Of a stretch of 55,480 bases of DNA, positions 13,404-41,325 are shown piece by piece. Position 1 is the first letter of the stretch; each line of letters opens with the position of its first letter. A program made the translations under genes and the position numbers. The notes under the pieces are model-generated. The model made no database searches and was not told the origin of the DNA. It worked only from the letters and a program-made list of their open reading frames with translations. Source of the DNA: Planctomycetota bacterium (lineage in GTDB: Bacteria; Planctomycetota; Planctomycetia; Planctomycetales; Planctomycetaceae); NCBI GenBank assembly GCA_027618475.1, contig JAQCEJ010000030.1, positions 1-55,480 of the forward strand, read 5' to 3'.

Positions 13404-13459
13404 CGACGGTGAACCCCCTGTCACAACACACAGAGCATTGCTGACGGAGTAACGTAACC

Positions 13460-21181: not shown

Positions 21182-21400
21182 TCATTTCGATTCGCGCAGC
21201 GTGTGTCCGATGGCGAAGACTACGATGGCAACAACGGTGAGCGCGGGCATAAGAATCAGTCGAAATCCGAAATTCAGCTGCCAGAGAATCAACAGAGGGA
21301 GAAATCCCATCACGAGCAGTTGCAGGTAATATCCGATCTGCTGTTTCATGTCCCCGAGATAACTTTCTATCAGGATGATCATCAAATGCACGGCGGACAT
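21182..21400 (-). CDS. Small two-helix membrane protein (72 aa)
   Basis: 72-residue hydrophobic protein with two predicted transmembrane segments (YYLQLLVMGFLPLLILWQL and ILMPALTVVAIVVFAIG). It starts 51 bp after the stop of the VWA membrane protein, on the same strand, so is likely the last gene of that operon. The start is uncertain: GGAG lies only 2 nt before the ATG at 21400; an internal ATG at 21382 is an alternative. Family not recognised; a small subunit or membrane anchor of the VWA complex is possible. Confidence 0.6.
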   Translation of the reverse strand: MSAVHLMIILIESYLGDMKQQIGYYLQLLVMGFLPLLILWQLNFGFRLILMPALTVVAIVVFAIGHTLRESK

Positions 21401-21451
21401 TGCTCCGATGCCGCGTCGTTTGGTCTCTCATTACATTAACGAGAACGTCCG

Positions 21452-23704
21452 TCAGACGAAACCACGGAACAGGCGATAGGACCAGTCCAACGCCAACAGC
21501 AGGGAGAGGAGCAGCATGAGGCTGAAGTTATGCCACAGATCGTAGGGATGCTGTCGGATCGATGTCACTCCGGCTGGTGTTTCCGCCGAGACCCAGCCCT
21601 CTTCACGTGTCGGATCAATCACTCGCCCACCGGTTAATGACGCCCAGCGTTCGAGCGTAGCAAGGTCGACTGCCGTCCCGTCAATTTCCCGATCGCCGCG
21701 GGTCACCTCGATCACGACGAACGTTTCTGCGACAGACTGGCCGTTCAATGTCGCCGACGCTTCGATGCGATAGCGTCCAGGTTCGGTCGCTTCGAATTCG
21801 ACGGCGGGAATCGCTCCGGGAGTCGCCGGCACGCGGATCGAGACGGGAACACGCCGACCGTCGGGCATCACGACGGTGGCGTCGAGTGATGGGACCGATG
21901 GTTCATCGCCGCCGGTGGTATTCAATTCGGCGGCGATTCGTACCGTTTCTCCGGTTCGATACTTGGTTCGTTCGGGACGCAAAAACATCTGCCGCCCCGC
22001 CGCCGATCGCTCCATCGGGGCCATCGCCCGCATGGCGTGTTGCCAGAAGGCGGCGTGCAGTGTCACCCCGTCGTCGGTCCTTGGTCCATAATTCTGCCAG
22101 CGCCATAATGTGTCGGTCGCGACAAACAAGACGCGGCCTCGTCCGTATGTGTGCTCGACTATCACGGGCAACGGACCGTAAGCATTCTGATGTCCCATTG
22201 CCTCTACGAGTACGGTTGCAGCCGGCTGTTTGCGCAGCACCGGGTAAACATGTTCGAGCGTCGGTAACGTCGAGACTGTTTTCGGCTGCGAATTCTGACC
22301 GGTCGGCAACGTAAACCAATCGGATGACCGTCCCGCCGGTGTCAGCTGCAACTCAATTGCACCGGAGAGCGGCAATCCCGAATCGCGTGTCAATTCCACA
22401 GGCAACAACCGAGACAATTCGGGCGTTTCGACCCATTCCCCCAAATGCCTTCCCGCCAGAACGACGAGCGATTTACCGCCATCGCTCACCACCGAATGAA
22501 TGTGGCGTGCGAGACCTCGCGGCCAACTCGACGGCTGCACGTCACCCACAATGATCGTATCGAACCCATCGAGTTCGCTGCGACTTTGTGGAAAACCGCC
22601 CAACTTAACCCGCCGGTCTGGTTCTCCAAACTGTACAAAGGCATTCCCCTCTCGGGACAGAAACGCCGTCATATTGAAACTCGGATCGTCTTCAAGCACA
22701 CGCCGGAGATATTTGAATTCCCAGCGCCAGGTTTCTTCCAAGATCAGTACATCGTGCTTGTCGTCGACGGCCAGTACATTAACGGCAAATGGCCGACCGA
22801 CAGCGGCCTCCCCTTGTCGTAAAAAGAATTCGTAACGTTTCAATCCCGCCTCTTTCGGGCAGTCCTTGATGATGACGAACCGATCATCCGCGGCGACCAG
22901 TCCCGCCAATTCTTCCCGAGCCAGTTCCTGCCCTTCAACTTCGGCGACCAGCGTAAGATTGTCGAGTGAACGGTTCGGCCGCACCGTAACCTGAAATGCG
23001 GTTTCCGATCCGACAAGGACACGGCGTGCCGCCTGTACCAGATCGATCGAGGCCGCCGAGGCAGCTTCATTGTCGGCTGTCAGCGACAACGGCAGGATAT
23101 CGACTGCCAGTCCCAGTTCTTTGGCAGTGGCCACGACATCGGACGAACTCCGATTGATGCCGTCGGAGACCAGCAGGACTCGATCGGGATCTGCGTTTAT
23201 TTCACGGGACGCGTTCGACAACCGGACATGATTCCAGGCCGATTTGAGACTCGCCGCGATATCGGTTTCGTCACCAGCCGGGGCGATTTGATCGAGTTCA
23301 TCCGGCATGATCGGAATGGCACGTTGATCGAATGAAAACCAATGCACGTTGTGCGTCCGCGTTGCAGATTGCACGGCCGGACTCTGCTCGATAAGCCGCC
23401 GTGCTTCGTCCCAGCGCGTTCCTTCGGTCGACGCCGACGACATACTTGCCGAGCGATCGAGCAACAGAATCAGGCCGGGGACGTCGGTAACGGATTTCGG
23501 CAGAGAAAGTACGGGTTGAAACAGGCAGAGTGTCACGACGGCGATCATTCCCAATCGCAGCAAACCTAACTGCCAGATGGCGTTACGAGGAACATGCTTT
23601 TCCCGCAACAGCCAGCTGCCGTATGCCAACACGGCCATCAGCGCGACGGCAAACAGCACAATGACCGCCGGTGGAAACATCGGTAACCATTGCCAGGTCA
23701 TCAT
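21452..23704 (-). CDS. Membrane VWA / glutamine-amidotransferase-like protein
   Basis: 750-aa membrane protein. Two N-terminal TM helices (about 11-35 and 50-67) precede a von Willebrand A domain whose MIDAS is intact (LLLDRSASM: D83, S85, S87). A following amidotransferase-like region has the GFDTIIVGDVQPSSWP..LVVLAGRHLG pattern, with no catalytic cysteine visible, so is probably non-enzymatic. A beta-rich domain and a C-terminal TM (LMLLLSLLLALDWSYRLF) follow. Planctomycete and Bacteroidetes BatA/B relatives share this layout. Its start overlaps the upstream VWA gene by 4 bp. The protein is expected at the inner membrane with the VWA domain exposed to partners such as MoxR clients. Confidence 0.85.
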   Translation of the reverse strand: MMTWQWLPMFPPAVIVLFAVALMAVLAYGSWLLREKHVPRNAIWQLGLLRLGMIAVVTLCLFQPVLSLPKSVTDVPGLILLLDRSASMSSASTEGTRWDEARRLIEQSPAVQSATRTHNVHWFSFDQRAIPIMPDELDQIAPAGDETDIAASLKSAWNHVRLSNASREINADPDRVLLVSDGINRSSSDVVATAKELGLAVDILPLSLTADNEAASAASIDLVQAARRVLVGSETAFQVTVRPNRSLDNLTLVAEVEGQELAREELAGLVAADDRFVIIKDCPKEAGLKRYEFFLRQGEAAVGRPFAVNVLAVDDKHDVLILEETWRWEFKYLRRVLEDDPSFNMTAFLSREGNAFVQFGEPDRRVKLGGFPQSRSELDGFDTIIVGDVQPSSWPRGLARHIHSVVSDGGKSLVVLAGRHLGEWVETPELSRLLPVELTRDSGLPLSGAIELQLTPAGRSSDWFTLPTGQNSQPKTVSTLPTLEHVYPVLRKQPAATVLVEAMGHQNAYGPLPVIVEHTYGRGRVLFVATDTLWRWQNYGPRTDDGVTLHAAFWQHAMRAMAPMERSAAGRQMFLRPERTKYRTGETVRIAAELNTTGGDEPSVPSLDATVVMPDGRRVPVSIRVPATPGAIPAVEFEATEPGRYRIEASATLNGQSVAETFVVIEVTRGDREIDGTAVDLATLERWASLTGGRVIDPTREEGWVSAETPAGVTSIRQHPYDLWHNFSLMLLLSLLLALDWSYRLFRGFV

Positions 23705-25932
23705 GGTGCGGTCGCTCCTTCCCGCTCCGCCTCACGTTCTTTCAGCGGTGCGACAAAACCGCGGCGTCGACGATGTGAACCACTGATCGCCGGATTCATT
23801 TTCGGGCAAAGCCAGTGTACAAGAAACATTTCCGTCAGCAGACACAATCCTGCAAGTCCGATCAACCAGGGTTCCAAGACAATACGATCGTCGTCGGCAT
23901 TCGCGGTCGATTCGGAGATTCCCTGCACCTGTTCGATTTCGATCTCAACTGGGGACCACCACGCGCGGAATTTCTCGGGATCGACCGACTCCAACCGACT
24001 CTCTTCACGCCCCGGTTGTATGATCAACGAAAAATCGGCCGTCGAACCGTCAGACGATTCAACCCGGTAGTACCCCGCTTCGGTCGCATCGGCAATGTTC
24101 ATCCAGGTTCGCGTCCCGACCGATTGCAGCTGCACCGTGACGTCCTTCCCAGAGGGGGACAAAACGCGCGGCGGCCGGTTCGTTGCTTCATCATTCGACA
24201 ACACGAGCGTCATCGGCTCACCGATCGTCCAGCTGCGACGATATCCTCCGGTTTGTACGTGAGACAACAAACGATCGATTAACGGGACGAAACTCTTTCG
24301 ACGCGGTAAGTCGCACCAGCGGTCATCAGCCGAGGCGTTTACGATCACGACTTTCCCCGCACCGACACGACGGGCGATCAGCGCGGGCGAGCCGTCACCA
24401 AGCGTCGCCAGCACTTCGTCGGAGGGGGACAACTCCTGAGCGAAACGATACCACCGTTGCGATGACGTCGCTGCGAGATCGCCAATCTCGGGATCGACCA
24501 ACCCCTTGAGTATCGAATGCCGATCGTTCCAGTGAGTCCAGGTCGACAAGCCTCCGTCGGCGATCTCGGCAGCCAGCGTTCCGGCGAGTTCCGCAGGCAG
24601 AATGCTTCCCGACGCATCGAGAGGCTGCCGAAACCCGCGATTGTAATTCTCGTATTCGACGGTGGGCCCGAGAAACAGAATCAATCCGGCTCCGTGCATC
24701 ACGCGCGCTGTGATAGCCGTCGCCAGCGATTCGGGCAGGCCGGGGACGTCCGCCAGAAGAATGACTTCAGCCGCGTCAATGTCGTTCGAGGTCAACGTTG
24801 ACGGATCACGCACGAGTAAGGTGCCTTCGGCAGCGAGAGAACCGGCTTCGCCCAACGCACCGATGGCCGTCTCTAACGCCAGTCCGGTTCGCTGGGTCGC
24901 GCCCGGGGGGGTAATCGGCGTCACCAACAATAACGGAGCCCCTCCCGTCTCGCTGAGGTCGACATACAGCACGTCATCGTCGGCCAGATCATCGGCAGGT
25001 TCGAGTTTCAGCGTGGCAAGACTCCCAGAGGCTTCGAATGTGGATGGCAACGGCAATTCAAGTTGCGTCCGTCTCCCCGGCGTAATCGTCACCGGTATCT
25101 CTTCGGTTTCGACTCCCTTCACCCCCGAAATATGCAGTGTTCGCTTTAACGGACCGTCTCCGACGCCGTCGACTTCAACACGCAAGACAGCGGTCGAATC
25201 TGCACCATGAACTCGCGCGCCAACCAGCCAGGCATTTCTCGGTAAAGGAACAGAGGCATCGACCAATCGAAATGTGACTGACGGCAGATCACTGACATCG
25301 TGTGCGAACGTCGCGAGTTCTGTCGTATTCCAACCAGACGCCGGATTGTCCGTCAAAAAAACGACTTCGACGGCGACATCCGGTCGGAGTTGAGTCAGCA
25401 GCGAACGAATCGGTTCCAGTGAGGTATCCAGTCGCGTCTCTTCCAACGTCGGCTGCAGCGTTTCGATCGCCGGTAAATACAACGCCGGGTCGGAAGTCCA
25501 CGGGGCGAGAACGCTCGTCGATTGGCCGGTCACCAGCACGGATGTGCGATCCCCCGCGACGTTGTGACGAATGATGTCGAGAGCCATCTTGCGAACCGAC
25601 TCGAAGGGTGTCGGACGGCCGTCGACCAGCCGGCCCATGCTGCGACTGACATCCAGGACGATGATTCGATCGAGCCCCGAACTCTCCCCGCGCGTCGACC
25701 AGATCGGCCGCGCCAGCGCGAAGACAAGTAACACCAGGAATGCTGCCCGTAACAGAAACAGCAACACCTGATGCCATTGGATACGCCGCGCCATTCGCTG
25801 TTGTGTCAGATGCAGCCAGCGCAAACTGCTGAACGGAGTCTGACGGACATGCCTCGGCTGAAACAGATGGACGACTATCGGAATAGCCAGCAGGGCCAGA
25901 CCGAACAGAGCCAAAGGGGCGAGCAAAGTCAT
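23701..25932 (-). CDS. BatA-like membrane protein with VWA domain
   Basis: 743-aa protein beginning with the aerotolerance-regulator BatA N-terminal region: two TM helices around LFQPRHVRQTPFSSLRWL. A VWA domain with an intact MIDAS (VLDVSRSMG: D94, S96, S98) follows, then beta-sandwich domains and an amidotransferase-like segment. The C-terminal TM (EPWLIGLAGLCLLTEMFLVHWL) anchors it. It overlaps the neighbours by 4 bp on each side (25929-25932 and 23701-23704). In MoxR-DUF58-VWA operons such proteins act with the AAA ATPase, probably in envelope assembly or stress tolerance. Confidence 0.9.
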   Translation of the reverse strand: MTLLAPLALFGLALLAIPIVVHLFQPRHVRQTPFSSLRWLHLTQQRMARRIQWHQVLLFLLRAAFLVLLVFALARPIWSTRGESSGLDRIIVLDVSRSMGRLVDGRPTPFESVRKMALDIIRHNVAGDRTSVLVTGQSTSVLAPWTSDPALYLPAIETLQPTLEETRLDTSLEPIRSLLTQLRPDVAVEVVFLTDNPASGWNTTELATFAHDVSDLPSVTFRLVDASVPLPRNAWLVGARVHGADSTAVLRVEVDGVGDGPLKRTLHISGVKGVETEEIPVTITPGRRTQLELPLPSTFEASGSLATLKLEPADDLADDDVLYVDLSETGGAPLLLVTPITPPGATQRTGLALETAIGALGEAGSLAAEGTLLVRDPSTLTSNDIDAAEVILLADVPGLPESLATAITARVMHGAGLILFLGPTVEYENYNRGFRQPLDASGSILPAELAGTLAAEIADGGLSTWTHWNDRHSILKGLVDPEIGDLAATSSQRWYRFAQELSPSDEVLATLGDGSPALIARRVGAGKVVIVNASADDRWCDLPRRKSFVPLIDRLLSHVQTGGYRRSWTIGEPMTLVLSNDEATNRPPRVLSPSGKDVTVQLQSVGTRTWMNIADATEAGYYRVESSDGSTADFSLIIQPGREESRLESVDPEKFRAWWSPVEIEIEQVQGISESTANADDDRIVLEPWLIGLAGLCLLTEMFLVHWLCPKMNPAISGSHRRRRGFVAPLKEREAEREGATAP

Positions 25933-26993
25933 CGGCGCACCTTGCTGCGACGGTTGAGAAACGCGGTGAGAGCATGGTCGTACTGCTGTCGCGTATTGAT
26001 CAACTGATAATCAATTCCCGATTCGGTCAAACCCTTGCGGTAAAATTCACAACATTGCCGAATCTGTTCGAGATACCCGTCGCGGACGGCCATCGGGTCA
26101 ATCTCCAGCTCTTCACCCGTTTCCAGATCGCGGAACTGCGTCGCTCCTTGAAAGGGAAATTCCAGTTCCGCCGCATCCTGCAGATGAAAGACGATCACAT
26201 CATGTTTCTGGCTGCGCAGCTGCCGAATCGCCTTGAGCGTCGTTTCGGGGTCATCGATCAGATCGCTGATCACCACCACCAGTCCCCGGCGTTTCAGATT
26301 ACGGGCTATTAAACGCAGACTCGAAGGCATGTCGGTCCCTCCTTCCGGAGGGTTGTCGACCATCACCTTCATCATCTGGCGCAAATGCGGACGTCGACAA
26401 CGGGGTTGAACCAGCAGACCCGGCTTTGCGCCGAACAGAGCCAAACCACAAGCGTCTTGCTGCCGCAGGACAAGATAACCAAGACAACTGGCTAGAAAGC
26501 AGCCGTAATCCCATTTCGTCAGTAGCCCGGTGCCGAAGGACATCGACGCCGAGCGATCGAGCAGAACATAACAGCGCAGGTTCGTTTCATCTTCGTAACG
26601 TTTGACGTAATAATGATCGGTTCTTGCGTACAAATGCCAGTCGAGGTATTTCAGATCGTCGCCGGGGACATATTCGCGATGGTCGGCGAACTCGACCGAA
26701 AACCCATGAAACGGGCTTTTGTGCAGACCGTTTAAAAATCCCTCGACGACCAGCCGAGCCAGCAGTGGGGAAAACCCGACTCGCGCCAGCACCTCGGGAT
26801 TCAAATAACGATCGGGACTCGCCGAGGAGATTCCTTCGGTTAACGACACCTGACCGGCATGCTCACTCCAGGCGCGATGTAACTTCTGCAACAGTCTCGA
26901 TGCTGACGGTCCGAGCTTACGCCACCACGCAGAACGTTGATTCCCGTTCCGGGGGATTGGTGTATTCGGCGGGAGGGGCGAATTTGTGGACAT
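25929..26993 (-). CDS. DUF58 protein (MoxR-associated, VWA-like)
   Basis: 354-aa soluble DUF58 protein. The family core HREYVPGDDLKYLDWHLYAR spans about residues 105-124, followed by a VWA-like MIDAS (LLDRSASMSFG, D146/S148/S150). DUF58 proteins are the constant partners of MoxR AAA ATPases and probably deliver or bind substrates for remodelling. The gene follows MoxR by 47 bp and overlaps the next VWA gene by 4 bp. The first 30 residues are Pro/Asn-rich and likely flexible. Confidence 0.93.
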   Translation of the reverse strand: MSTNSPLPPNTPIPRNGNQRSAWWRKLGPSASRLLQKLHRAWSEHAGQVSLTEGISSASPDRYLNPEVLARVGFSPLLARLVVEGFLNGLHKSPFHGFSVEFADHREYVPGDDLKYLDWHLYARTDHYYVKRYEDETNLRCYVLLDRSASMSFGTGLLTKWDYGCFLASCLGYLVLRQQDACGLALFGAKPGLLVQPRCRRPHLRQMMKVMVDNPPEGGTDMPSSLRLIARNLKRRGLVVVISDLIDDPETTLKAIRQLRSQKHDVIVFHLQDAAELEFPFQGATQFRDLETGEELEIDPMAVRDGYLEQIRQCCEFYRKGLTESGIDYQLINTRQQYDHALTAFLNRRSKVRR

Positions 26994-27040
26994 GTCGCTT
27001 CAGACTTTCGTGCCTCGTCATGCACCGACAGATCACTCGA

Positions 27041-28048
27041 TCAGTTTGTTCGTTCCGTCACCATTTCGAGGAGTCGGCGAACGATGTCATCGGTGCTGAT
27101 CCCTTCCGCCTCAGCGGCGAAGCTGCACGAAATGCGGTGCCGCAAAACGGGGAGCGCCAGATGACGGACATCGTCGCACGATACGTTCAACCGGCCTTGC
27201 AACGCGGCCCGGCATTTCGCACAAAGAATCAACGCCTGACTCGCACGCGGCCCGGCCCCCCACGAAATCTGTTCGGTGATGAATTCCGGTACGCCGGGTT
27301 CCAGAGGACGAGTCGCCCGGACCAGATCGACGGCATAGCGGGTCACGTGCTTCGAAACCGGAAGACTGCGTACCAGTTTCTGCACGCGGATTACGATCTC
27401 CTGATCGCACACCGGTTGCAGATTTACCTCGACGTTCGCCGTCGTTCGTTCGACGATCGTCTCTTCTTCATCGAGGGAGGGATACCTGATAAACGTATTC
27501 AGCAGAAAGCGGTCTTTCTGCGCTTCCGGCAGCGGATATGTTCCTTCCTGATCGATCGGATTTTGAGTCGCTAAGACGAAAAACGGTTCGGACAGTTTGT
27601 ACGTCTTTCCGCCCGCGGTCACTTCGTGTTCCTGCATCGCCTGCAACAGGGCGGCCTGAGTTTTCGGCGGCGTCCGGTTGATTTCATCGGCCAGCACGAC
27701 GTTCGTAAAGATGGGGCCGGGGACGAAGACCGTGACACGTTTACCCGTCGTGTGATCTTCTTCGATCACGTTCGTCCCCACAATGTCCGAGGGCATGAGA
27801 TCGGGGGTAAACTGAATGCGTTTGAATTCGAGCGACAATAACTGCGCCAGCGTGTTGATCATCAACGTCTTGGCAAGACCGGGAACCCCTTCGAGCAGAT
27901 TGTGACCGCCGGCGAATACCGTCACCAGCAGTTCTTCTAGAACCGATTGCTGACCGACGATCACCTGCGACATGCCTTCGAGCATGCGGGCGTGGAGTTG
28001 ACTCAGTTGGGCTAATTCACGTTCAATTTCAGCGGGGGGAATGCTCAC
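27041..28048 (-). CDS. MoxR family AAA+ ATPase
   Basis: 335-aa AAA+ ATPase. Walker A is EGVPGLAKT (K60/T61), Walker B and sensor are VLADEINRTPPKTQAALLQAMQEHEV, and the arginine-finger region sits near NPIDQEGTYPLPEAQKDRF. Subfamily MoxR ATPases are chaperone-like and act with DUF58 and VWA partners, all of which follow in this operon. The gene leads the MoxR-DUF58-VWA-VWA part and is separated by 191 bp from the DUF4159 gene upstream on the same strand, so it may have its own promoter. Confidence 0.93.
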   Translation of the reverse strand: MSIPPAEIERELAQLSQLHARMLEGMSQVIVGQQSVLEELLVTVFAGGHNLLEGVPGLAKTLMINTLAQLLSLEFKRIQFTPDLMPSDIVGTNVIEEDHTTGKRVTVFVPGPIFTNVVLADEINRTPPKTQAALLQAMQEHEVTAGGKTYKLSEPFFVLATQNPIDQEGTYPLPEAQKDRFLLNTFIRYPSLDEEETIVERTTANVEVNLQPVCDQEIVIRVQKLVRSLPVSKHVTRYAVDLVRATRPLEPGVPEFITEQISWGAGPRASQALILCAKCRAALQGRLNVSCDDVRHLALPVLRHRISCSFAAEAEGISTDDIVRRLLEMVTERTN

Positions 28049-28239
28049 GATGTTGGCTTATCAGCAGAAGGTAATGAGGAGGGAATATACGGCTCGGCCG
28101 ATTCAACGGAATGTTGCGTTCAAATGACACGGTCCTCAATAACCTCTCGATTTTGACTTTCTGTGCGTAGAAATCTGGATAATTCAGACGAAATGACGAC
28201 TTTTCTGTCCACCGGTTTGTTCAATCGTGCATCGACGAT

Positions 28240-29799
28240 TTAGTGGCTCAGTGCATACGTAATCGCATTAATCACAATTCGCGTCGCATCGTCGGCGCTG
28301 ACTCCCTTCGCGTAGGCATTCGACTCATGATTCACGCCGCTCATCAGGTCGAACGGCGTATACAGAACCGCCAATCGACCGTCTAAAAACACTCCGTAGA
28401 ATTCCGGATATTCGAGCGTGGGATCATCGCGCAAGGCAGTCGGAGTATACTCGACCCGTTCGATGGGATTCCATCCTCCCAGAAACAGCGGATGCGTGGC
28501 GGGGAGTTTGATCAGTTCCCCCTCGGGAAGTGCTTTTTGAAGTTCTCGCCGAAAACCAATGTCGAACGGCTGTAAACCGGCGGCTGCCGTGGCGACGATC
28601 ATGCCTCCCCGTTCGAGATAGGCTTTCAGACCGTCGGCCTCTTCACCGGTCAACTGAAAATCGTAATGTCCCGTCATAAAGACGAGTGGGTAATCTCCCA
28701 GTTCGGGATCGTCGAGAGCCACGGCCACCGGAGCGTAGTCGACGTCGAGACCGGTATTTTCCGACAGCCCCTGCAATACACTGTTTTGTAGTGACGGATT
28801 GACATCCCAGCTGCCGTTGTAGGCGAGAAGACCGAAACGAAACACGTCGCCGGGGGCGGTGCGTCCGTCGTAGACCGGGAATTCCTGTGCGAGAAAACGC
28901 CCGTACTCGGTAGCCCCTAGAACGTACGAAACCAGATTGACGCCGAGTCGCACGGCGGATTCACCGACGAGGTGCTTTCCTTGCGGATGATACGGTTCGC
29001 TGCTCCAGGCCGCCCCCATACCGATCGGTGCGAGAATCGCTGCGGCGCGCGTACCGATATCGAGTGTGTAGATTTCAGGGGGTTGCTGAAACTGAATTCC
29101 ATTGACGAGCGTCATCACTTTAGGAACGCGATAACGGGCGTTAAACAACGGGTGATCTTGTGGAGCCCGCATGAAGCGTTTTTCAGGAAACACTTTTCGC
29201 ATCTCGCGAACGACGGCTTGCGAAAACTCATCGCGCCCGCGAGCTGCATTGAATAAGATGGTTCCTCCTTCTGAGAGAAACTTTCGCAGGTTATCAACTT
29301 CTTCGGGTGAAAAGGTGAAGTCGTAATCACCGGCCATAAACAGCAAGGGAATATCAATCGGATCGAATCCCTCGCTGGCCAGCGGCTTGGTGGCATACTG
29401 GTAGTTGTTCCCATCCTCCAGCCGGGAATTCACCGACGCCATCAGGTAATAACCGTCGTTGGGAAAACTCTTCCATTGTTCGAACGTCTGAACCGTGCCG
29501 TCGGTGTGCACGTATTCGAGCGTTTCTCCGTATTCGAGCTTGTACATGACAGTCAAGTTCGTAGGAGGAGGAGGCGTACGGGTTTGTGTCTTACGTTGCG
29601 ATGGACCGGGATCGGGAATGACACCCGTATCTTCGCCGCTCGCTTCGGTCTTATCAGGTGCCTTGACCGGCGGTGGCGGCGGTGCTTCCGCAGGTGGAAA
29701 CGTAACGCGGCGCTGGGCAAGTGCAGTGGATGCCTCCCCCAGACCGAGAACGATCATGAACAGGCAAATTCCGACGGTATTCGCACAGACACGTTTCAT
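28240..29799 (-). CDS. Exported protein with tandem DUF4159 domains
   Basis: 519-aa secreted protein. A signal peptide (MKRVCANTVGICLFMIVLGLGEASTALA) is followed by a Pro-rich linker and two DUF4159-like domains, about residues 100-300 and 310-519. Each has the DY(P/D)..(V/L)FMxGxYDF(T/Q)L(S/T)xEE pattern (PLLFMAGDYDFTFSPEE, PLVFMTGHYDFQLTGEE) typical of this amidotransferase-like Rossmann family. ATG 29799 is chosen because it overlaps the upstream stop by 4 bp (ATGA, 29796-29799) and puts the signal peptide at the start. The 18-residue frame extension upstream is rejected. Function unknown; the domain also occurs in BatA-type proteins, linking it to the MoxR operon beside it. Confidence 0.88.
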   Translation of the reverse strand: MKRVCANTVGICLFMIVLGLGEASTALAQRRVTFPPAEAPPPPPVKAPDKTEASGEDTGVIPDPGPSQRKTQTRTPPPPTNLTVMYKLEYGETLEYVHTDGTVQTFEQWKSFPNDGYYLMASVNSRLEDGNNYQYATKPLASEGFDPIDIPLLFMAGDYDFTFSPEEVDNLRKFLSEGGTILFNAARGRDEFSQAVVREMRKVFPEKRFMRAPQDHPLFNARYRVPKVMTLVNGIQFQQPPEIYTLDIGTRAAAILAPIGMGAAWSSEPYHPQGKHLVGESAVRLGVNLVSYVLGATEYGRFLAQEFPVYDGRTAPGDVFRFGLLAYNGSWDVNPSLQNSVLQGLSENTGLDVDYAPVAVALDDPELGDYPLVFMTGHYDFQLTGEEADGLKAYLERGGMIVATAAAGLQPFDIGFRRELQKALPEGELIKLPATHPLFLGGWNPIERVEYTPTALRDDPTLEYPEFYGVFLDGRLAVLYTPFDLMSGVNHESNAYAKGVSADDATRIVINAITYALSH

Positions 29800-34180: not shown

Positions 34181-34664
34181 CGCATCGAAAGAGAAATTTG
34201 AGGCCCGTCACCCAAAACCTGACCTGCGACGGAATTAACCCTACTTTTGACTCGAAACGTCTGGCATCTCGTGGGGAATGAGTCAGTTACAGGACAACAT
34301 GTCAGCAGAAAAATTTCCCATCGGCAGAACCGTCAACCGATCCAGATTCTGCCTCTGATAACATATTAACAGCGATCCTGGCTGTTATCCAGCAGGAAAT
34401 CAACCTCCCCGTGTCGAACCTCGACGCGGGTTGATTCCGACATTTTACTTCACCTCGAGAACGACAGTTTGAAGAGATTTAAGACGCCATACCATAGTCA
34501 ACTGTTTTGTCTGTCGTTGTGTCTGTTGGGATATCCCCGCTTGCACTCGTCTCAATTCCACCATTAGAATCAAAAGAGAAGCGTTTAGAGCGAGACGGTT
34601 CCTCCGGAATCGAATTCCTTGAGATCTGTTCGGAGCACGAACAATAATTCTCTGTCGAGGTGTT
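34181..34664. other. Divergent promoter region of the envelope locus
   Basis: 484 bp between the leftward and rightward envelope genes, no gene supported. It contains an imperfect hairpin at 34398-34436 (AATCAACC paired with GGTTGATT) and the rightward promoter candidate at 34619-34648. Shared regulation of both arms is plausible. The leftward promoter was not identified. Confidence 0.5.
34619..34648 (+). promoter_or_regulatory. Candidate promoter of the rightward envelope arm
   Basis: TTGAGA (34619-34624), 18-bp spacer, AATAAT (34643-34648): 5/6 matches in both boxes. A start near 34655 gives a short leader containing GAGG (34656-34659), 5 nt before the ATG at 34665. Confidence 0.5.
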
Positions 34665-37600
34665 ATGATCGACCGAATCGAATCGTTGCAGGGCCTTATG
34701 AAGTCACAGCGACTCCGTTGGCAACGCTGGCACTTGCTCGAAGCCGTCGGCTGGACGCTCTCCGGTCTGCTGGGGTACTTCCTTATCGCCGTGCTCATCG
34801 ATAACGTGGCGCACCTTCCGATACTGGGACGCTTTGCGTTGACGATCGGCCTGATCCTGATGATCGGCTGGCTTGGTCGACATCTCGTCGCCCGATTGCT
34901 TCAACGCCCCGTCACCGAAGACGAAATTGCACTGGCCATCGAACGTCGCACACACGGCGTGGTCGAAAACCGGCTCATCAACGCACTGCAGATCGGCCGC
35001 GAATCAGCACAAGGACAATATGCTCTGGCACCGGCCCTCATCCAGGAAAATTGCCGTCATCTGGCGACGGTCACTCTCCCCGCAGCCACAACGATTCAAC
35101 CGGCGACACGGTGGCTCATTTTTGCGGCGTTTCTGTCGGCGATTGCCGCTGGTGGCTGGCTCTGGCAGCCGCAGCGATTTGCGAGTTCTGCAGCGCGAAT
35201 TTTGATGCCGTTTGCCTCGATCGACCCCATTTACCGAACGCGACTGGAAGTCGAACCGGGGGATATCGAAGCGGCCGGAGACATTCAACTCCGCATTCGC
35301 ATCTTGGGTGAGATTCCGGAAGAACTCGCCGTTCTCACCGACGAACAAAATCGACTCAGCACACACGTTGTATCGACGAATCATTCCCGCACCGTTTCGT
35401 ACAGACTGAGAAACGTGAAGCAGAGTTTGTCGTACGCCGTTCGCGGGGGGGATTTCATGTCTCCCTACTATCGCATCGAGGTTCCGACCCCCGCGCGGCT
35501 GAAACATGTCGAAGCGACGTATACCTATCCCGAATATACGCGGATTTCACCTAAATCGGTGACGTCGCAAGGCGACCTCGAAGCACTGGCGAGAAGTCAT
35601 GCCCGGTTAAAGTTTACGCTCGATCAACCGGTTGAGCATCTCCGGTTGCTGATGCGCAGCCGTCCCGATTCAGACCGCAGCACCGACGGTCAACATGCGA
35701 AACCACGCACACTCGAATTGCAACAATCGAGTGCCACCGAATACGTCGGCGAATTATCATTCGACGACGTATCGGAATACGCCCTGGAAGCGGTTCGCCC
35801 CGATCGGCCCAGCAGGGTCGGTCCCTGGTACGCCATTCGCATCGTCGACGATGAACCGCCACGGCTGACGCTGACCGGATTACCATCGAACGGTGAACTG
35901 GGGATCGACTCACCCATCAGTGTGCAGGTCGAGGCAGTTGACGATCTCGGACTGGCACAAATGGGATTGTTCTTCCGCCGCACGCGACCGAGCGTCGAAT
36001 CGGAAGCGACTGACGGCGAGGGATGGACGGCGATTCAAACAACGACGATCGACCATCTTCGCCAGGCGACAAATCGCTGGGAGTTATTGCCGGCGAATTG
36101 CGGCCTCGTCGAAGGTGAGCGAATTGAACTGGCAGCTCGGGCTCTCGACTTTAATCCGGACCGCGCCACACACTGGACGACCGGCACGCCGCAAGTCTTG
36201 CTGATTGCCAGCGATGGGTCTCAATTGCAATTGCTGTATGAGCAGATTCTGAAAACCGAAGCCGAACTGGCCGCACTGATCGAGGTAGAACAACGGCAGT
36301 TCAATAGTTTGGAGCGGCTGGTCCGCACGCTGGATAACGATCCGAACGCCGATGGCAACGATCCCGAACGCGTCAAAGTGCTGGTAGCGACGGCGACCGA
36401 AACTTCTCTGGAACAGGATCAGACACGTCAGACCGCCGGACGAATCGCACGCGAGATGGCGGCTCCGGCAGGAAATCTGCGTTTGTCTGTCGCTTTACTG
36501 GCCGATGCCGAAATGGTGCGGGCCATTCGAATTCTCGACAGCGTCGTGACGCGCGACGATGCCGCCGGCCGCCGAACGTCGTTTGCCGATGTCCGAGCAA
36601 CAACGCAACGCATCGTGCAAAGTTTGAACGAGATTTACGAACAATATGTCCGATTCCGCAAAGAATGGGAACTGGCGCACATGACGTCGTTCCTGCGAAT
36701 GCTCGCCGATCGTCAGGCGTTGCTTCGCGATCAAACGGTCGGCTGGCGTGACGGATCCAGCGAGGTTTCCGAGACACTGCGCGAATCGGCTTCGCGACGA
36801 CAGACAAAGCTGGCGGAACTCTGCGGACTGGCGGCGACGGCATTTTCCGGACTGGCCGAACGCGCTGCCGAACTCGAGTTGCCGTTAAGCGAAACGTTTG
36901 CAGAAACCTCCGAAACCCTCGACGGCGAAGAGTTGCAATCGGGGCTGTCGGCCGCGACCGATGCATTAACCTCTTCCGAATGGTCGACCGCTGCCGATCG
37001 CCAAACGGAAGCGGCGATCTTGCTCGATGCACTTTATACTCGATTGCGAGAAGCCCAGAACGAAGCTGCCCGTCAGATGTTGTCCGACATGGATCAACAC
37101 GAAGAAAGCGACCTTGCCGGTCAGGCCGACATCGAAAAACTGAAACAAGGCAACACCGAAGACATGCTCGATGAGCCGGAAGGGTTAAGCCTCGAGAATA
37201 TCATCCATAACGCCGAAGTCGCTCGTGCTAAAAAAGACGGTACGGGGAACGACGAGGAATACAAGAACGATTATCTTTTTCCGGACAGTGCCGTCCCCGG
37301 ATTGCAGCGTGCCGACAGCGGCATGCGGCAGGAATTCAAGAATCTTAAACTTGCCGAGTCGCCCGGCAAGACGCCGAGTTTCCCCAGCCAGTCCGACCGG
37401 CAGAGCAATCGTGTCAAGCCCCATATTCAAGAGAAATTCGAGGATCTCGTGGGAGATTTGCTCGAAGAAGAGGACGAGATGAAGGAGAACTACGAGACCT
37501 TCAATCTCAACGCCGCGTTCAATATCAACGAAAAGGGAGACGTCGGCAAACAAGGGGGAGACCTGAACTCAACGGCGGCAGCGGCGGCAACCGGCAATCA

Positions 37601-38333
37601 AAAGCCTCCGACGACCAATGTCGGCGGAGCATCCCGCGTCGGCCGACAGGGGGCACGCGCACACGGTGCCGCCGTCGGTAACGAATCGATCAACCGCCGC
37701 GGCCGCGACAAGGTTCAGGAAGGTCAGGAACGTGTTCCCGATCAGGCCGGATCGGTGAAAGAAACGAAAAGCGACGACCCGCAGTCGGATACATCGACCG
37801 GCATCGGCGGCCGAAAAGTCGAATCCGACGAGGCGACGTTCAGCCTTAGCGATTCCGGCGAATGGTCGGATGACATGATCGATCGCATGGACAAGCCGCT
37901 CGACAAGCAGTCGATCGTAGAACGGCAGGGTGCGAAGTTTGATTCCGAACTTGCGGAAAAACTTCGAGATATGACCAGCAAACAGGAACAGACCATCGAA
38001 CGATTGAAGTCGATTCGCAAAGATCTCAAGAATCTGTATCTGCCAACTGAACATCTTGATCAGCTGATCGATCAGATGCAGGCGAATTTACAAAGCCTCA
38101 ACGACCGGCCCACGGCCGATATTTTCCGCCTGCAGCAAGAAACATTGGAAAAAGTGAGGGGAGTGTTGCAGGTCTTCCATCAGGCTCATTCGGGATTTCA
38201 GGCGAGTTTGCCGCGCGATCAGCACGTTCGTGGACGAATTGTCGACGAACCGGCTCGGTCGGCTCCTCCCGGATACGAAGCCGCCGTCAAAGTCTATTAT
38301 GAGCGACTCGCCGCTCCTGAAGGATCTCGATGA
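34665..38333 (+). CDS. Large membrane/coiled-coil protein (DUF4175-like layout)
   Basis: 1222-aa protein with three TM helices in the first 170 residues (LSGLLGYFLIAVLI, FALTIGLILMIGWL, WLIFAAFLSAIAAGGWL), a periplasmic beta-rich region with Ig-like segments (about 200-520), then long charged coiled coils (about 520-880 and 1120-1200) and a low-complexity Glu/Gln/Asn/Gly-rich section. The layout resembles DUF4175-type proteins, but the family match is by arrangement only. Most of the protein should project from the inner membrane. It overlaps the next gene by 4 bp and is the first gene of the rightward arm, divergent from the PA14/PKD/TPR gene. Confidence 0.75.
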   Translation: MIDRIESLQGLMKSQRLRWQRWHLLEAVGWTLSGLLGYFLIAVLIDNVAHLPILGRFALTIGLILMIGWLGRHLVARLLQRPVTEDEIALAIERRTHGVVENRLINALQIGRESAQGQYALAPALIQENCRHLATVTLPAATTIQPATRWLIFAAFLSAIAAGGWLWQPQRFASSAARILMPFASIDPIYRTRLEVEPGDIEAAGDIQLRIRILGEIPEELAVLTDEQNRLSTHVVSTNHSRTVSYRLRNVKQSLSYAVRGGDFMSPYYRIEVPTPARLKHVEATYTYPEYTRISPKSVTSQGDLEALARSHARLKFTLDQPVEHLRLLMRSRPDSDRSTDGQHAKPRTLELQQSSATEYVGELSFDDVSEYALEAVRPDRPSRVGPWYAIRIVDDEPPRLTLTGLPSNGELGIDSPISVQVEAVDDLGLAQMGLFFRRTRPSVESEATDGEGWTAIQTTTIDHLRQATNRWELLPANCGLVEGERIELAARALDFNPDRATHWTTGTPQVLLIASDGSQLQLLYEQILKTEAELAALIEVEQRQFNSLERLVRTLDNDPNADGNDPERVKVLVATATETSLEQDQTRQTAGRIAREMAAPAGNLRLSVALLADAEMVRAIRILDSVVTRDDAAGRRTSFADVRATTQRIVQSLNEIYEQYVRFRKEWELAHMTSFLRMLADRQALLRDQTVGWRDGSSEVSETLRESASRRQTKLAELCGLAATAFSGLAERAAELELPLSETFAETSETLDGEELQSGLSAATDALTSSEWSTAADRQTEAAILLDALYTRLREAQNEAARQMLSDMDQHEESDLAGQADIEKLKQGNTEDMLDEPEGLSLENIIHNAEVARAKKDGTGNDEEYKNDYLFPDSAVPGLQRADSGMRQEFKNLKLAESPGKTPSFPSQSDRQSNRVKPHIQEKFEDLVGDLLEEEDEMKENYETFNLNAAFNINEKGDVGKQGGDLNSTAAAAATGNQKPPTTNVGGASRVGRQGARAHGAAVGNESINRRGRDKVQEGQERVPDQAGSVKETKSDDPQSDTSTGIGGRKVESDEATFSLSDSGEWSDDMIDRMDKPLDKQSIVERQGAKFDSELAEKLRDMTSKQEQTIERLKSIRKDLKNLYLPTEHLDQLIDQMQANLQSLNDRPTADIFRLQQETLEKVRGVLQVFHQAHSGFQASLPRDQHVRGRIVDEPARSAPPGYEAAVKVYYERLAAPEGSR

Positions 38334-39670
38334 CCGATTTGCTGATCGCCGCGCACCGGCGTCGCGATATGCGGTGTTTGCTGCTGATTTTGGTCGCATG
38401 TCTGTGGGGACCGACAATCGGTTTTGCTGCAAAAGAGCTGCGCGTCAAAGCCCCGACGGAAACGCCGCTCCCTTTCGTGACAACGGTCACTGCCCCTTTG
38501 GCACGGCATGTCGCCGTAAGTGATGTGGCTGGTATCGTGGCCATCGGCCATCGGATGAAACACCCGGTTCACGTGTCGATATATCGCCTCGATGATCAAG
38601 GTCAAGTCGCCGCCGGTGATCCGATCGCGCTGACGCTGCCGAAACCGGCCTCGCTTGCCACGCATTCGAATTTCCCATTGGGCGTGTTATGTCATCCGCA
38701 ACTCCCCTTGCTATATATCTGGCAGGACATCGACCCTGTCATGCCGAACGTGCTCGTCGACCCCGCATTGACGGCAGAGTTCGATCATCTGTTTATCTAC
38801 AGTCTCGCCGAGGCGGAACCCAGGTTGTTGCTCGCCACGGCACGCGGAACCGACTACGCCAGCGGAAATCTCGTCGGTGGATTCGCCTTAAACGAAGACG
38901 CCTCACGTTTGTATGTCCCCAGCATGCAGCGAATGAATGCAGCGAAAAAATTTGAAACGGGGGTCGGTTGGATCGTGCTCGACCCCGACGGACTCCCGGC
39001 CTTCGATTCACCCGATACACCAACTGACGAAGTAATCGCGGCTCCGACCGATGATGTCCCACCGCCGGACTGGGCGACCGCCTCGGCCTTGCACGCGGCA
39101 AAGTTAGCCGCCATCGATCAGGCCGCCGCAGCAGGCATGCCGCTGATTCTGCGACGCTATCTGGAAGTGAGCTGGACGTTTCAGACACAACCGGCTCCGT
39201 ACAATTATGCGCCGTTAAACGATGACATCATTTTTGGTGCGGTGCATTCCGGTATTGCCAACTGGATACTGCCCGATCGCCTGGGCCGTATTAACTACCT
39301 TTATGTGCAGCCGTACGTCCCCTATCGCTACCGCGTTGCCGTTCACCCCACGGCTCCGTCGGTCTACGTCGCTCCTATCACCTACGACGGCCGTATCATG
39401 CGCGTCGAACATGCCGATGGCTACTTCACGCTCGTGCCGCAGACGCTTAACATTGAGACAATGGTCTATCACAGCACACCGCTGGTATTGCCAAAGACAA
39501 ATCAGGTTGCGATTGGTGCGAACGGCCGCATCTGCCTGATCGATCTCGAAGAGGATGGCCGCTTCAAAGCCGCCGTCGTGCAAATGACGATCAATAATCC
39601 AAACGTCGAAGGTCTGGCGTGGTCCGAGCGATTCGGGCGTCTTTATGTCCCTGTGGAGCCTCCACCATGA
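38330..39670 (+). CDS. Exported beta-propeller-like protein
   Basis: 446-aa protein. ATG 38330 overlaps the previous stop by 4 bp; a second ATG at 38369 directly precedes the signal-like hydrophobic stretch (MRCLLLILVACLWGPTIGFAA). The mature region has repeated short strands such as HVAVSDVAGIVAIGH, VHVSIYRLDDQG, LFIYSLAEAEPRLLLA and RLYVPSM, resembling WD/YVTN-type propeller blades. No catalytic motif is seen. It overlaps the following gene by 4 bp. Confidence 0.7.
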   Translation: MTDLLIAAHRRRDMRCLLLILVACLWGPTIGFAAKELRVKAPTETPLPFVTTVTAPLARHVAVSDVAGIVAIGHRMKHPVHVSIYRLDDQGQVAAGDPIALTLPKPASLATHSNFPLGVLCHPQLPLLYIWQDIDPVMPNVLVDPALTAEFDHLFIYSLAEAEPRLLLATARGTDYASGNLVGGFALNEDASRLYVPSMQRMNAAKKFETGVGWIVLDPDGLPAFDSPDTPTDEVIAAPTDDVPPPDWATASALHAAKLAAIDQAAAAGMPLILRRYLEVSWTFQTQPAPYNYAPLNDDIIFGAVHSGIANWILPDRLGRINYLYVQPYVPYRYRVAVHPTAPSVYVAPITYDGRIMRVEHADGYFTLVPQTLNIETMVYHSTPLVLPKTNQVAIGANGRICLIDLEEDGRFKAAVVQMTINNPNVEGLAWSERFGRLYVPVEPPP

Positions 39671-40368
39671 ACCTGAGCCGTCTCACACATCCTTCTACCG
39701 GACCGAATCGTATTGTCGGGTTCTTTCGGTCGTTGCCACTTGTTCTGATAGGTATCGCTTTTTCGCTGTGCGGAAGCACGACGTTTGCGCGCACGATCGT
39801 CATCACCGACGAAGAATGCGAACTGATGGCGGCGATCACCGCGGCGGCGCCGCGAGTCGGCTGGGCCGGTATTTCGTACGGGCCGGGAGAGTACATCAAC
39901 TCGCAGATCGACGTGACGACAAAATCGTCGTTTCTCATTCAGTTTCCGCTCGATCGTATTCCCAAAAGTCATCGCATCAGGAAGGCCGAACTCACGATCC
40001 CCTATGATTTGCATGCACCTCCCACGGGAATTCGCACGCAAGTGCATCGTCTTCTTGCCGATTGGGGACCGGGTGTATGTCATCAGTTCCGCCGCACCCG
40101 TCCCGAACGAGTGGAATGGAAAACGGCAGGAGCTATGGGATTCGGCACAGATCGGGCCGTCAAACCGACGGCTACCGCGTCGCTGAAAGGGGCGGGCGAG
40201 CACACATTCAACGTCACCGAGGATGTCGAATTATGGCATTCCGGCGCAGCGGGAAATCATGGCTGGTTGATTACGACCGATGATCCCATGGGATATCTGA
40301 GACTGGCATCCCCCTTCTGGGGGGGGGCCAAACGCTGGAAGCTGCGGATTACTTTTGAGCCGCGTTGA
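39667..40368 (+). CDS. Exported DNRLRE-like domain protein
   Basis: 233-aa exported protein: basic N-terminus, hydrophobic FFRSLPLVLIGIAFSLCG, then a jelly-roll region with DVTTKSSFLIQFPLDRIPKSHRIRKAELTIPY, VHRLLADWGPG..WKTAGA and FNVTEDVELWHSG, the DNRLRE-type pattern of adhesion modules in planctomycete surface proteins. ATG 39667 is chosen because it overlaps the preceding stop (ATGA, 39667-39670); the longer frame back to 39619 is rejected. The 3' end overlaps lspA on the opposite strand by 20 bp (40349-40368), a convergent overlap. Confidence 0.75.
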   Translation: MNLSRLTHPSTGPNRIVGFFRSLPLVLIGIAFSLCGSTTFARTIVITDEECELMAAITAAAPRVGWAGISYGPGEYINSQIDVTTKSSFLIQFPLDRIPKSHRIRKAELTIPYDLHAPPTGIRTQVHRLLADWGPGVCHQFRRTRPERVEWKTAGAMGFGTDRAVKPTATASLKGAGEHTFNVTEDVELWHSGAAGNHGWLITTDDPMGYLRLASPFWGGAKRWKLRITFEPR

Positions 40369-40936: not shown

Positions 40937-41325
40937 AGTGTCAACTTTTCGCGCTTCCGTTCGCATTCGACGCAATTGCGGGCATAAGGGATCGCCTTGA
41001 GGCGGGATTTCAAAATCGCCGCTTTCGACGCAGACACGCCTGCCTGCAGGCACATTTCACACATGCCATAAACGCCATTTTCGATTCGTACGAGTGCTGC
41101 GGTAATCTCATCGAGCGTTTCCTGCTCGTTTTCGATAAACCGAAGTGAGAAATCCTGTTCGTATGCTTCCGATCCGAGTTCGGCCAGATGCGTGGGCGAT
41201 TTCGATTCGACCCCGACATCCCCACGGTCAAGCGTTTCGTCGGTTAATTGTCGAACATCCCCGCGCAACCGCGCCTGAATCGAGATCAAAAGGTGCTTGA
41301 ATTTGTCGAGTTCGTCTTTTTTCAT
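40933..41325 (-). CDS. DksA/TraR family zinc-finger protein
   Basis: 130-aa DksA-like regulator. A helical N-terminal half (LDKFKHLLISIQARL...LIENEQETLDEI) is followed by a C4 zinc finger C89-x2-C92...C118-x2-C121 (YGMCEMC and RNCVEC), in which the usual third-cysteine spacing is preserved. Such proteins bind the RNA polymerase secondary channel and mediate (p)ppGpp responses. Its stop overlaps the lspA start. A consensus-like promoter lies 127 bp upstream. Confidence 0.88.
   Translation of the reverse strand: MKKDELDKFKHLLISIQARLRGDVRQLTDETLDRGDVGVESKSPTHLAELGSEAYEQDFSLRFIENEQETLDEITAALVRIENGVYGMCEMCLQAGVSASKAAILKSRLKAIPYARNCVECERKREKLTL

What the first reader, a model, noticed from the sequence alone, without database searches (positions are those of the whole stretch)
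21182..40368. A 19-kb divergent envelope locus of chained-overlap genes with MoxR, DUF58, VWA, DUF4159, beta-helix, PA14/PKD/TPR and propeller proteins
Seen: two divergent arms. The leftward arm has ATGA overlaps at 31418, 29796, 25929 and 23701; the rightward arm at 38330 and 39667. Known: MoxR, DUF58 and VWA proteins act as a chaperone-like unit, and DUF4159 resembles amidotransferase-like domains found in BatA-type proteins. Inference: the locus builds or repairs a cell-surface structure, with the MoxR unit remodelling exported client proteins. The combination with beta-helix, PA14/PKD and propeller proteins is not a system I can name.
Basis: partly seen in the sequence, partly recalled or inferred. 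Interest (0 to 1): 0.75.

Follow-up and report, generated by a model that had tools for sequence, protein, structure and literature searches.

The report
Ten-gene MoxR-powered cell-surface assembly operon
Ten neighbouring genes that recur together, in the same order, in other scattered bacterial genomes likely form one machine in which an ATP-driven chaperone inside the cell would help assemble a protein coat or adhesive on the outside; in this genome the first three genes appear flipped, which is why the locus looks like two opposed arms.

Summary
In detail: ten genes, six exact ATGA overlaps, two divergent arms. The divergence is not the usual design. In 8 of 19 close relatives' loci all ten genes lie on one strand in one order (DUF4175-like, propeller, DNRLRE, PA14/PKD/TPR, beta-helix, tandem DUF4159, MoxR, DUF58, BatA, VWA/MG2). 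Both blocks are co-directional in 13 of 13 such loci that hold them; only the window has the first three genes turned round. Both marker proteins are present together or absent together in 14 of 14 relatives' genomes searched, so the arms are one unit. The engine resembles a simpler cluster of the same class (DUF4159, MoxR, DUF58, BatA, VWA in 4 of 4 selected loci, usually with a DUF4175-like gene), with paralogues in the same genome. This locus adds a second DUF4159 domain and four exported proteins of types known from archaeal surface proteins. Most likely mechanism (inferred): cytoplasmic MoxR/DUF58 works through membrane VWA proteins and the DUF4175-like scaffold to assemble a carbohydrate-binding surface structure. 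No function has been tested; open-licence full-text searches found no description. New variant of a known kind.

The parts
34665..38333 (+). DUF4175-like protein, 1222 aa: N-terminal membrane segments, long middle region, then a low-complexity Gly/Asn/Ser-rich segment (res. about 920-1060) that holds its most conserved 40 residues; first gene of the cluster in relatives
   Evidence: The name DUF4175-like is from recall of the topology; no DUF4175 hit at E 0.01
38330..39670 (+). Predicted exported beta-propeller protein, 446 aa
   Evidence: model and PDB fold matches; hydrophobic N-terminus; ATGA overlap with the previous gene
39667..40368 (+). Predicted exported DNRLRE-domain (CBM96-like) protein, 233 aa
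   Evidence: NF033679 40.3 bits; hydrophobic N-terminus; ATGA overlap
34181..34664 (.). Intergenic region between the two arms, at the left breakpoint of the inferred inversion
   Evidence: 1 promoter-like match against a mean of 0.5 in shuffles: not evidence
31418..34180 (-). Predicted exported PA14/PKD/TPR protein, 920 aa; first gene of the left arm
29796..31421 (-). Predicted exported right-handed beta-helix protein, 541 aa
28240..29799 (-). Predicted exported protein with a conserved Pro-rich N-terminus and two tandem DUF4159 domains, 519 aa (ORF extends to 29853 if read from TTG)
   Evidence: PDB 4i66; no Cys after the FPP motif in the window protein
27041..28048 (-). MoxR AAA+ ATPase, 335 aa (GTG start)
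25929..26993 (-). DUF58 protein with MIDAS motif, no membrane segment found, 354 aa
23701..25932 (-). BatA-type membrane protein with VWA domain, 743 aa
   Evidence: (TIGR02226)
21452..23704 (-). Second membrane VWA protein with macroglobulin/CARDB-like domains, 750 aa; last conserved gene
   Evidence: model pTM 0.46, local matches only
21182..21400 (-). 72-aa hydrophobic ORF, probably not part of the conserved unit

Best explanation
These ten genes recur as one co-linear unit in relatives, and together they likely make an envelope machine in which the cytoplasmic ATPase MoxR and its DUF58 partner would power the assembly of a carbohydrate-binding protein structure on the cell surface. Shown: ten genes in a fixed order in relatives, the two arms co-distributed, the first three genes inverted only in this genome among those seen, and ATPase and MIDAS (VWA) motifs conserved except in BatA of two relatives. 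Inferred: (1) MoxR rings use ATP to remodel DUF58. (2) The signal crosses the inner membrane through two VWA proteins (BatA and VWA/MG2), whose VWA domains are predicted to face the periplasm, and through the membrane-anchored DUF4175-like scaffold. (3) The exported tandem DUF4159 protein, which has no conserved cysteine and so is unlikely to be a cysteine-type amidotransferase, works as a binding adaptor. (4) The PA14/PKD/TPR, beta-helix, propeller and DNRLRE proteins are the clients, assembled into a surface coat, fibre or adhesive.
For: Synteny: all ten genes, one strand, one order, in L009, L011, L013, L014, L018, L020, L021, L025 (8 of the 19 loci L009-L027). The DUF4175-like and PA14/PKD/TPR blocks are co-directional in 13 of 13 ten-gene-type loci holding both (11, plus L071 and L072). 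Co-occurrence: full-length DUF4175-like in 12 of 14 genomes and full-length PA14/PKD/TPR in the same 12. Divergent homologues also co-occur: 31 of 40 genomes with the PA14/PKD/TPR type also have the DUF4175 type, against 77 of 254 without (Fisher p 2e-8); neighbouring and co-directional in 7 of the 30 other than the window's (places, distances). Pairwise-distance correlation 0.87-0.99 between all ten families. Purifying selection on all ten in two pairs of relatives. Core PA14/PKD/TPR-DUF4159x2-MoxR-DUF58-BatA-VWA in 3 of 14 divergent regions fetched (L077, L079, L084 of L073-L086). A simpler DUF4159-MoxR-DUF58-BatA-VWA cluster in 4 of 4 loci fetched from the class, chosen because one search had shown MoxR there; a DUF4175-like gene inside it in 2 of 4 and in a third (L100) by the place given. 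Topology: N-terminal hydrophobic segments in six of six exported or scaffold proteins, membrane segments in both VWA proteins, none found in MoxR or DUF58. MIDAS motif in DUF58 (11 of 11 rows) and VWA/MG2 (10 of 10). Carbohydrate and surface link: DNRLRE is related to CBM96 (PMC9971899, passage), PA14, and a CBM_4_9 hit in one of three proteins at the propeller position of divergent clusters. Propeller, PKD and beta-helix are the domains in the title of a paper on archaeal surface-layer proteins (seen only in a reference list). Precedent: MoxR1 is reported to mediate RipA export in mycobacteria (PMC12067865, passages).
Against: No phenotype, localisation or interaction was found for any of the ten. 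Adjacency and congruent trees are expected of any linked cluster and do not prove a complex. BatA's MIDAS is degenerate in L020 and L026, so not every VWA needs metal. The cluster is broken up or incomplete in L012, L016, L019, L022, L023, and the DUF4175-like gene lies on another contig in L026's genome, so co-transcription is not required everywhere. Patchy distribution (full-length PA14/PKD/TPR in 1 of 294 phylum genomes; 7 of 170 in the order) fits a dispensable niche function rather than core envelope building. DUF4175-like relatives also occur in 77 of 294 genomes without a detected PA14/PKD/TPR relative. The periplasmic side of the VWA domains rests on the positive-inside rule applied by eye.
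Confidence: 0.42

Rival explanations
1. A Bat-like envelope stress or quality-control system: MoxR/DUF58/VWA protect or refold envelope proteins in general, and the four exported proteins are sensors or protectants rather than structural clients.
For: The core genes are of Bat type. Bat disruption lowers aerotolerance in Bacteroides as retold in PMC3557215 (passages), and moxR and batA affect heat or oxidative survival in Riemerella (PMC11834572, passages).
Against: Bat proteins did not aid oxidative resistance in Leptospira biflexa (PMC3557215, passages). No BatD family among the ten. The genome keeps other MoxR-DUF58-BatA-VWA clusters (L108, L110). Four co-inherited exported proteins suggest specific clients.
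Confidence: 0.25
2. A biological-conflict (immunity) system related to the MoxR-vWA-beta-propeller ternary systems.
For: PF20030 bpMoxR hits the MoxR at 35.8 bits, cut-off 27. Patchy distribution. Such systems occur in Planctomycetes (PMC7159879, passages).
Against: AAA_3 fits far better (206 bits). In those systems the propeller is fused to the vWA protein, whereas here it is a separate protein with a signal-like N-terminus. PADLOC gives only one weak REase_II hit, 15 bits, on the MoxR ATPase. No effector domain found among the ten.
Confidence: 0.07
3. A polysaccharide capture or uptake machine: the exported proteins bind and hold large glycans at the outer membrane, and ATP work by MoxR drives their import rather than the building of a coat.
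For: CBM-like and PA14 domains. Planctomycetes bind dextran on fibres of crateriform structures and take it into the periplasm (PMC5394234, passages).
Against: No outer-membrane channel and no glycan-degrading enzyme recognised in the ten genes. The full-length PA14/PKD/TPR marker was found in 1 of 294 Planctomycetota sampled, too rare for a general uptake route.
Confidence: 0.15
4. Two unrelated operons that happen to be neighbours.
For: Opposite strands in the window.
Against: Co-directional in 13 of 13 ten-gene-type loci with both blocks; same 12 of 14 genomes; same placement of the window in both arm trees.
Confidence: 0.02

Closest known systems
Simpler DUF4159-MoxR-DUF58-BatA-(DUF4175-like)-VWA cluster of the window's family and class (L100-L103)
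   Same: Same core proteins in the same order apart from the DUF4175-like gene
   Different: Single DUF4159; no PA14/PKD/TPR, beta-helix, propeller or DNRLRE gene detected in the 20 kb held; the DUF4175-like gene, where detected (2 of 4, a third), lies between BatA and VWA instead of first
Bacteroides aerotolerance (Bat) / MRP-type moxR operon
   Same: MoxR, DUF58, BatA-type membrane VWA
   Different: No BatD; TPR only as a sub-threshold match within a PA14/PKD protein; DUF4159, DUF4175-like and four exported proteins added
Mycobacterial moxR1-DUF58-VWA operon beside ripAB
   Same: MoxR, DUF58 and membrane VWA next to exported envelope proteins; MoxR1 reported to mediate RipA export (PMC12067865, passages)
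   Different: Clients are peptidoglycan hydrolases; no DUF4159 or DUF4175 in the passages seen
MoxR-vWA-beta-propeller ternary conflict systems (Kaur et al. 2020)
   Same: MoxR, VWA and a propeller in one neighbourhood; bpMoxR profile above cut-off
   Different: Propeller not fused to VWA and predicted exported; no effectors; no PADLOC hit of note
[quoted passage not shown] 2002, title only, seen)
   Same: The same domain types; DNRLRE is also from archaeal surface proteins (PMC2447325, abstract; PMC9971899, passage)
   Different: There in surface-layer proteins without a MoxR engine (recalled); here separate genes

Membership tests
Bat / MRP-type MoxR operon | MoxR AAA+ ATPase with Walker motifs | tested here: met
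   AAA_3 206.5 bits; GVPGLAKT and LADEINR in 11 of 11 rows
Bat / MRP-type MoxR operon | DUF58 protein next to MoxR | tested here: met
   DUF58 176.2 bits; MIDAS motif in 11 of 11 rows
Bat / MRP-type MoxR operon | BatA: double-TM N-terminus plus VWA | tested here: met
   TIGR02226 65.7 bits, cut-off 23.05; PF07584 and VWA_2 above cut-off
Bat / MRP-type MoxR operon | BatB, second membrane VWA protein | tested here: inconclusive
   VWA_2 23.6 bits below the cut-off of 27, no NCBIfam hit; MIDAS motif in 10 of 10 rows
Bat / MRP-type MoxR operon | BatC (TPR) and BatD | tested here: not met
   No BatD family among ten proteins; TPR only as sub-threshold matches within the PA14/PKD protein
Bat / MRP-type MoxR operon | Aerotolerance phenotype | not testable with these tools
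   needs mutants
MoxR-vWA-beta-propeller ternary system | bpMoxR-type ATPase | tested here: inconclusive
   PF20030 35.8 bits over cut-off 27, but AAA_3 206.5
MoxR-vWA-beta-propeller ternary system | beta-propeller fused to the vWA protein | tested here: not met
   propeller is a separate ORF 38330-39670; definition from PMC7159879 passages
MoxR-vWA-beta-propeller ternary system | effector domains in the neighbourhood | tested here: not met
   none by Pfam, NCBIfam or PADLOC in the ten proteins; genes outside the ten were only partly scanned
DUF4159 family | PF13709 match | tested here: met
   two stretches, whole-protein 210 bits; solved relative 4i66
DUF4159 as cysteine-type amidotransferase | conserved nucleophilic cysteine | tested here: not met
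   0 Cys after the FPP motif in 9 of 12 rows; one Cys in 3 rows (residue 254 in L021 and L026, 296 in L025)
DUF4175 family | Pfam or NCBIfam match | tested here: not met
   no DUF4175 hit at E 0.01; the name is used for topology only (recall)

The most novel reading that the evidence does not exclude
A dedicated trans-envelope MoxR motor that builds a planctomycete surface lattice from separately encoded propeller, PKD/PA14, beta-helix and DNRLRE building blocks, i.e. an S-layer-like or crateriform-structure-like organelle with its own ATP-driven assembly line, docked through the highly conserved low-complexity tail of the DUF4175-like scaffold and the Pro-rich tail of DUF4159.
Probability: 0.15. 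Interest if true: 0.82.

Novelty: new variant of a known kind. Interest (0 to 1): 0.52.

Why it matters
MoxR-DUF58-VWA clusters are widespread, yet what they act on is largely unknown (recalled; the papers seen say as much for DUF58 and Bat proteins). Here a fixed, co-inherited set of predicted exported proteins rides with the engine, so the presumed clients are named by the genome and can be tested one by one. It also gives a candidate gene set for surface structures of Planctomycetota.

Tried and rejected
Two independent operons: rejected by synteny and co-occurrence. Conflict/defence system: no support beyond a bpMoxR match and patchiness. Rrf2 gene at 20563-21096 as a regulator of the locus: no Rrf2 match in the DNA held for L009-L027, so dropped; one lies near a lone DUF4159 in L031. 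72-aa ORF 21182-21400: not seen in 7 relatives. Conserved flanks pointing to one insertion site: of 20 window flanking proteins only generic paralogues (two DUF1501-like proteins, MoxR) matched L009, L011, L013, L014 or L067-L099 at E 1e-15. Repeat-mediated inversion: none of 19 inverted-repeat pairs convincingly links the two breakpoints, so the cause stays unknown; an assembly error cannot be excluded because I have no reads. BatA or VWA/MG2 sharing a domain with DUF4159: profile comparison found nothing (probabilities 0.3 and 0.2 percent). VWA/MG2 fold model: pTM 0.46, whole-chain matches poor, only local CARDB-like and VWA-like pieces. Promoters in the intergenic region: 1 match against 0.5 in shuffles. 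RNA families and tRNAs: none in the window. Recent transfer into the window genome: the window groups with genus g249 of its own family in both arm trees, so not supported; older transfers remain possible. A motif step failed and was redone. Limits: in the 294-genome searches only the best 2 or 3 first-look candidates per genome were scored, in the order search 5, and works from exact peptide patterns, so relatives will have been missed.
Full report
What is there. The window carries ten genes between 21452 and 40368. Left arm, read leftward: PA14/PKD/TPR (31418-34180), beta-helix (29796-31421), tandem DUF4159 (28240-29799), MoxR (27041-28048), DUF58 (25929-26993), BatA-VWA (23701-25932), VWA/MG2 (21452-23704). 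Right arm, read rightward: DUF4175-like (34665-38333), propeller (38330-39670), DNRLRE (39667-40368). Domain calls are from Pfam and NCBIfam. The VWA in the last left gene is below its Pfam cut-off but has a MIDAS motif in 10 of 10 rows aligned; the TPR families are just below theirs. The propeller was confirmed by structure prediction and fold search.

The divergent layout looks like an inversion. A pattern-based scan of GTDB species contigs with the DUF4159 protein gave 28 loci. Nine of them (L028-L036) are distant (at most 34% identity) and showed only DUF4159 of the ten families. Of the other 19 (L009-L027), eight (L009, L011, L013, L014, L018, L020, L021, L025) hold all ten genes on one strand in the order DUF4175-like, propeller, DNRLRE, PA14/PKD/TPR, beta-helix, DUF4159, MoxR, DUF58, BatA, VWA/MG2. 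L015, L024 and L010 show as much of that order as the DNA held allows. L026 has nine, its DUF4175-like gene being on another contig of the genome. L012, L016, L019, L022 and L023 are rearranged or incomplete; L017 and L027 are short. Where both blocks are in one ten-gene-type locus (11 of these, plus L071 and L072), they are co-directional in 13 of 13. The window alone has the first three genes turned round. No inverted repeat convincingly joins the breakpoints, and without reads an assembly error cannot be excluded.

The arms belong together. In the genomes behind 14 of the 28 loci (L012, L015-L026, L028), a full-length DUF4175-like protein (over 1300 bits) was found in 12 of 14 and a PA14/PKD/TPR protein (over 950 bits) in the same 12. 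The two without either are those of L019 and L028. On one contig the pair is co-directional in 9 of 9 genomes; in 3 it is on separate contigs. Caveat: several of these loci supplied rows to the profiles, and all were found through DUF4159. In a sample of 294 phylum genomes, weaker relatives are more widely spread: 40 have a PA14/PKD/TPR relative, 108 a DUF4175-like relative, 31 both (Fisher p 2e-8); only the best 3 and 2 candidates per genome were scored. In 7 of the 30 other than the window's, the listed places lie 3-5 kb apart and co-directional. The arm trees differ in inner branches (Robinson-Foulds distance 6; support up to 94 on one side of a conflict) but place the window next to genus g249 of its own family, with 100% support around it, in both. 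Pairwise distances correlate at 0.87-0.99 among all ten families.

Distribution. Full-length PA14/PKD/TPR proteins were found in 1 of 294 sampled phylum genomes (the window's) and in 7 of 170 genomes of the order; the window's genus has one held genome. A protein search gave 310 relatives among 7996 candidates scored; in the 120 listed, the names given are at most 'PKD domain-containing', 'TPR repeat protein' or 'hypothetical protein'. Several records are labelled Verrucomicrobia by their submitters, but titles in this set are unreliable. No window flanking gene accompanies the cluster elsewhere, apart from generic paralogues.

What the engine is. In four loci fetched from the window's family (L100-L102) and class (L103), chosen because DUF4159 stood next to MoxR there, the cluster is single DUF4159, MoxR, DUF58, BatA, VWA, with a DUF4175-like gene detected between BatA and VWA in 2 of 4 and in a third, L100, by the place given. 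Two other DUF4159 loci of the family (L042, L047) showed no MoxR in their short flanks. The window's genome itself has paralogous MoxR-DUF58-BatA-VWA clusters on other contigs (L108, L110), seven strong MoxR matches and six BatA domains. In 3 of 14 divergent regions fetched (L077, L079, L084) the order PA14/PKD/TPR, DUF4159x2, MoxR, DUF58, BatA, VWA is kept without the beta-helix. In three others (L075, L080, L083) the place of the propeller between DUF4175-like and PA14/PKD/TPR is taken by another protein family, one of three members of which has a CBM_4_9 carbohydrate-binding domain. So the engine is stable and the exported proteins vary: this is the main argument that they are the clients.

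Mechanism. MoxR and DUF58 have no membrane segment by a hydropathy scan; BatA has three candidate segments and VWA/MG2 two, plus a C-terminal helix in the model; the six remaining proteins begin with a hydrophobic stretch. With the positive-inside rule (applied by eye), the VWA domains of BatA and VWA/MG2 face the periplasm. The MIDAS motif is present in DUF58 and VWA/MG2 in every row, and degenerate in BatA of L020 and L026. DUF4159 has two domains, a strongly conserved Pro-rich N-terminus and no conserved cysteine, so a cysteine-dependent amidotransferase is unlikely and a binding role is inferred. In the DUF4175-like protein the best conserved 40 residues (961-1000, 0.85 against a mean of 0.63) lie in a low-complexity Gly/Asn/Ser-rich stretch (res. 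about 920-1060, 0.75-0.85); residues 1-200 could not be scored, and the C-terminal region after it also reaches 0.79. This suggests a docking segment. From this I infer that MoxR/DUF58 acts through the VWA proteins and scaffold on exported clients. Precedents, seen as passages: mycobacterial MoxR1 and RipA export (PMC12067865); Bat operons (PMC3557215 and PMC11834572); DNRLRE as a CBM96 relative (PMC9971899); dextran-binding fibres of crateriform structures (PMC5394234). The archaeal surface-layer paper (propeller, PKD, beta-helix) was seen only as a title in a reference list. A protein with a DUF4175 domain, AdvA, is a division factor in Acinetobacter (PMC7481262, passages); kinship to the protein here was not tested.

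Is it in print? Full-text searches for DUF4159 (0 papers), MoxR+DUF58+Planctomycet (0), MoxR+Planctomycetes+operon (5), MoxR+DUF58+VWA (2), DUF4175 (1), MoxR/VWA/BatA/aerotolerance/chaperone (6), MoxR+beta-propeller+vWA+ternary (3) and a five-term search (13, 10 listed) showed no title or start of abstract describing this cluster; passages of six of these papers were looked at, not whole texts. The library holds open-licence papers only. FtsZ-like/VWA membrane-remodelling operons (PMC2875224, passages) are a different set of genes.

Verdict. A real, conserved ten-gene unit; a specialised variant of the MoxR-DUF58-VWA (Bat/MRP) kind; divergent only here among the genomes seen, by an inferred inversion; surface-assembly function inferred, not shown.

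Noticed in passing
window 34665-38333, residues about 920-1060: The best conserved 40 residues of the 1222-aa DUF4175-like protein lie in a low-complexity Gly/Asn/Ser-rich segment (0.75-0.85 against a mean of 0.63); the matches listed for divergent relatives all end by model position 438 and do not reach it.
   Followed up: partly
window 28240-29799, residues about 33-80: Near-invariant Pro-rich N-terminal stretch before the first DUF4159 domain, unusual for a linker.
   Followed up: partly
window 44110-45066: A second MoxR gene 16 kb away, 37-41% identical to the cluster MoxRs of the loci searched, with no DUF58 or VWA domain found in the two flanking genes scanned.
   Followed up: no
window 40349-41053: Signal peptidase II (LspA) gene converges on, and overlaps by 20 bases, the end of the DNRLRE gene, at the right breakpoint of the inferred inversion.
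   Followed up: partly
window 11781-16729: HlyD-type and AcrB-type RND pump pair, followed by a DUF1559 gene with a pilin-like methylation motif at 17103-18074.
   Followed up: no
L075, L080, L083: Divergent clusters carry a different protein family, one of three members with a CBM_4_9 domain, in the slot of the propeller.
   Followed up: partly
L025:3870-5429: Two consecutive DNRLRE genes in this relative's cluster.
   Followed up: no
L031:9187-9543: An Rrf2 regulator lies beside a lone DUF4159 gene in a Neomarinimicrobiota-labelled record, as one lies near the window's cluster; none matched in L009-L027.
   Followed up: no
control genomes: Among 14 named control genomes, Caulobacter vibrioides alone has DUF4159 and is one of four with a BatA domain, so a tractable laboratory species carries part of the engine.
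   Followed up: no
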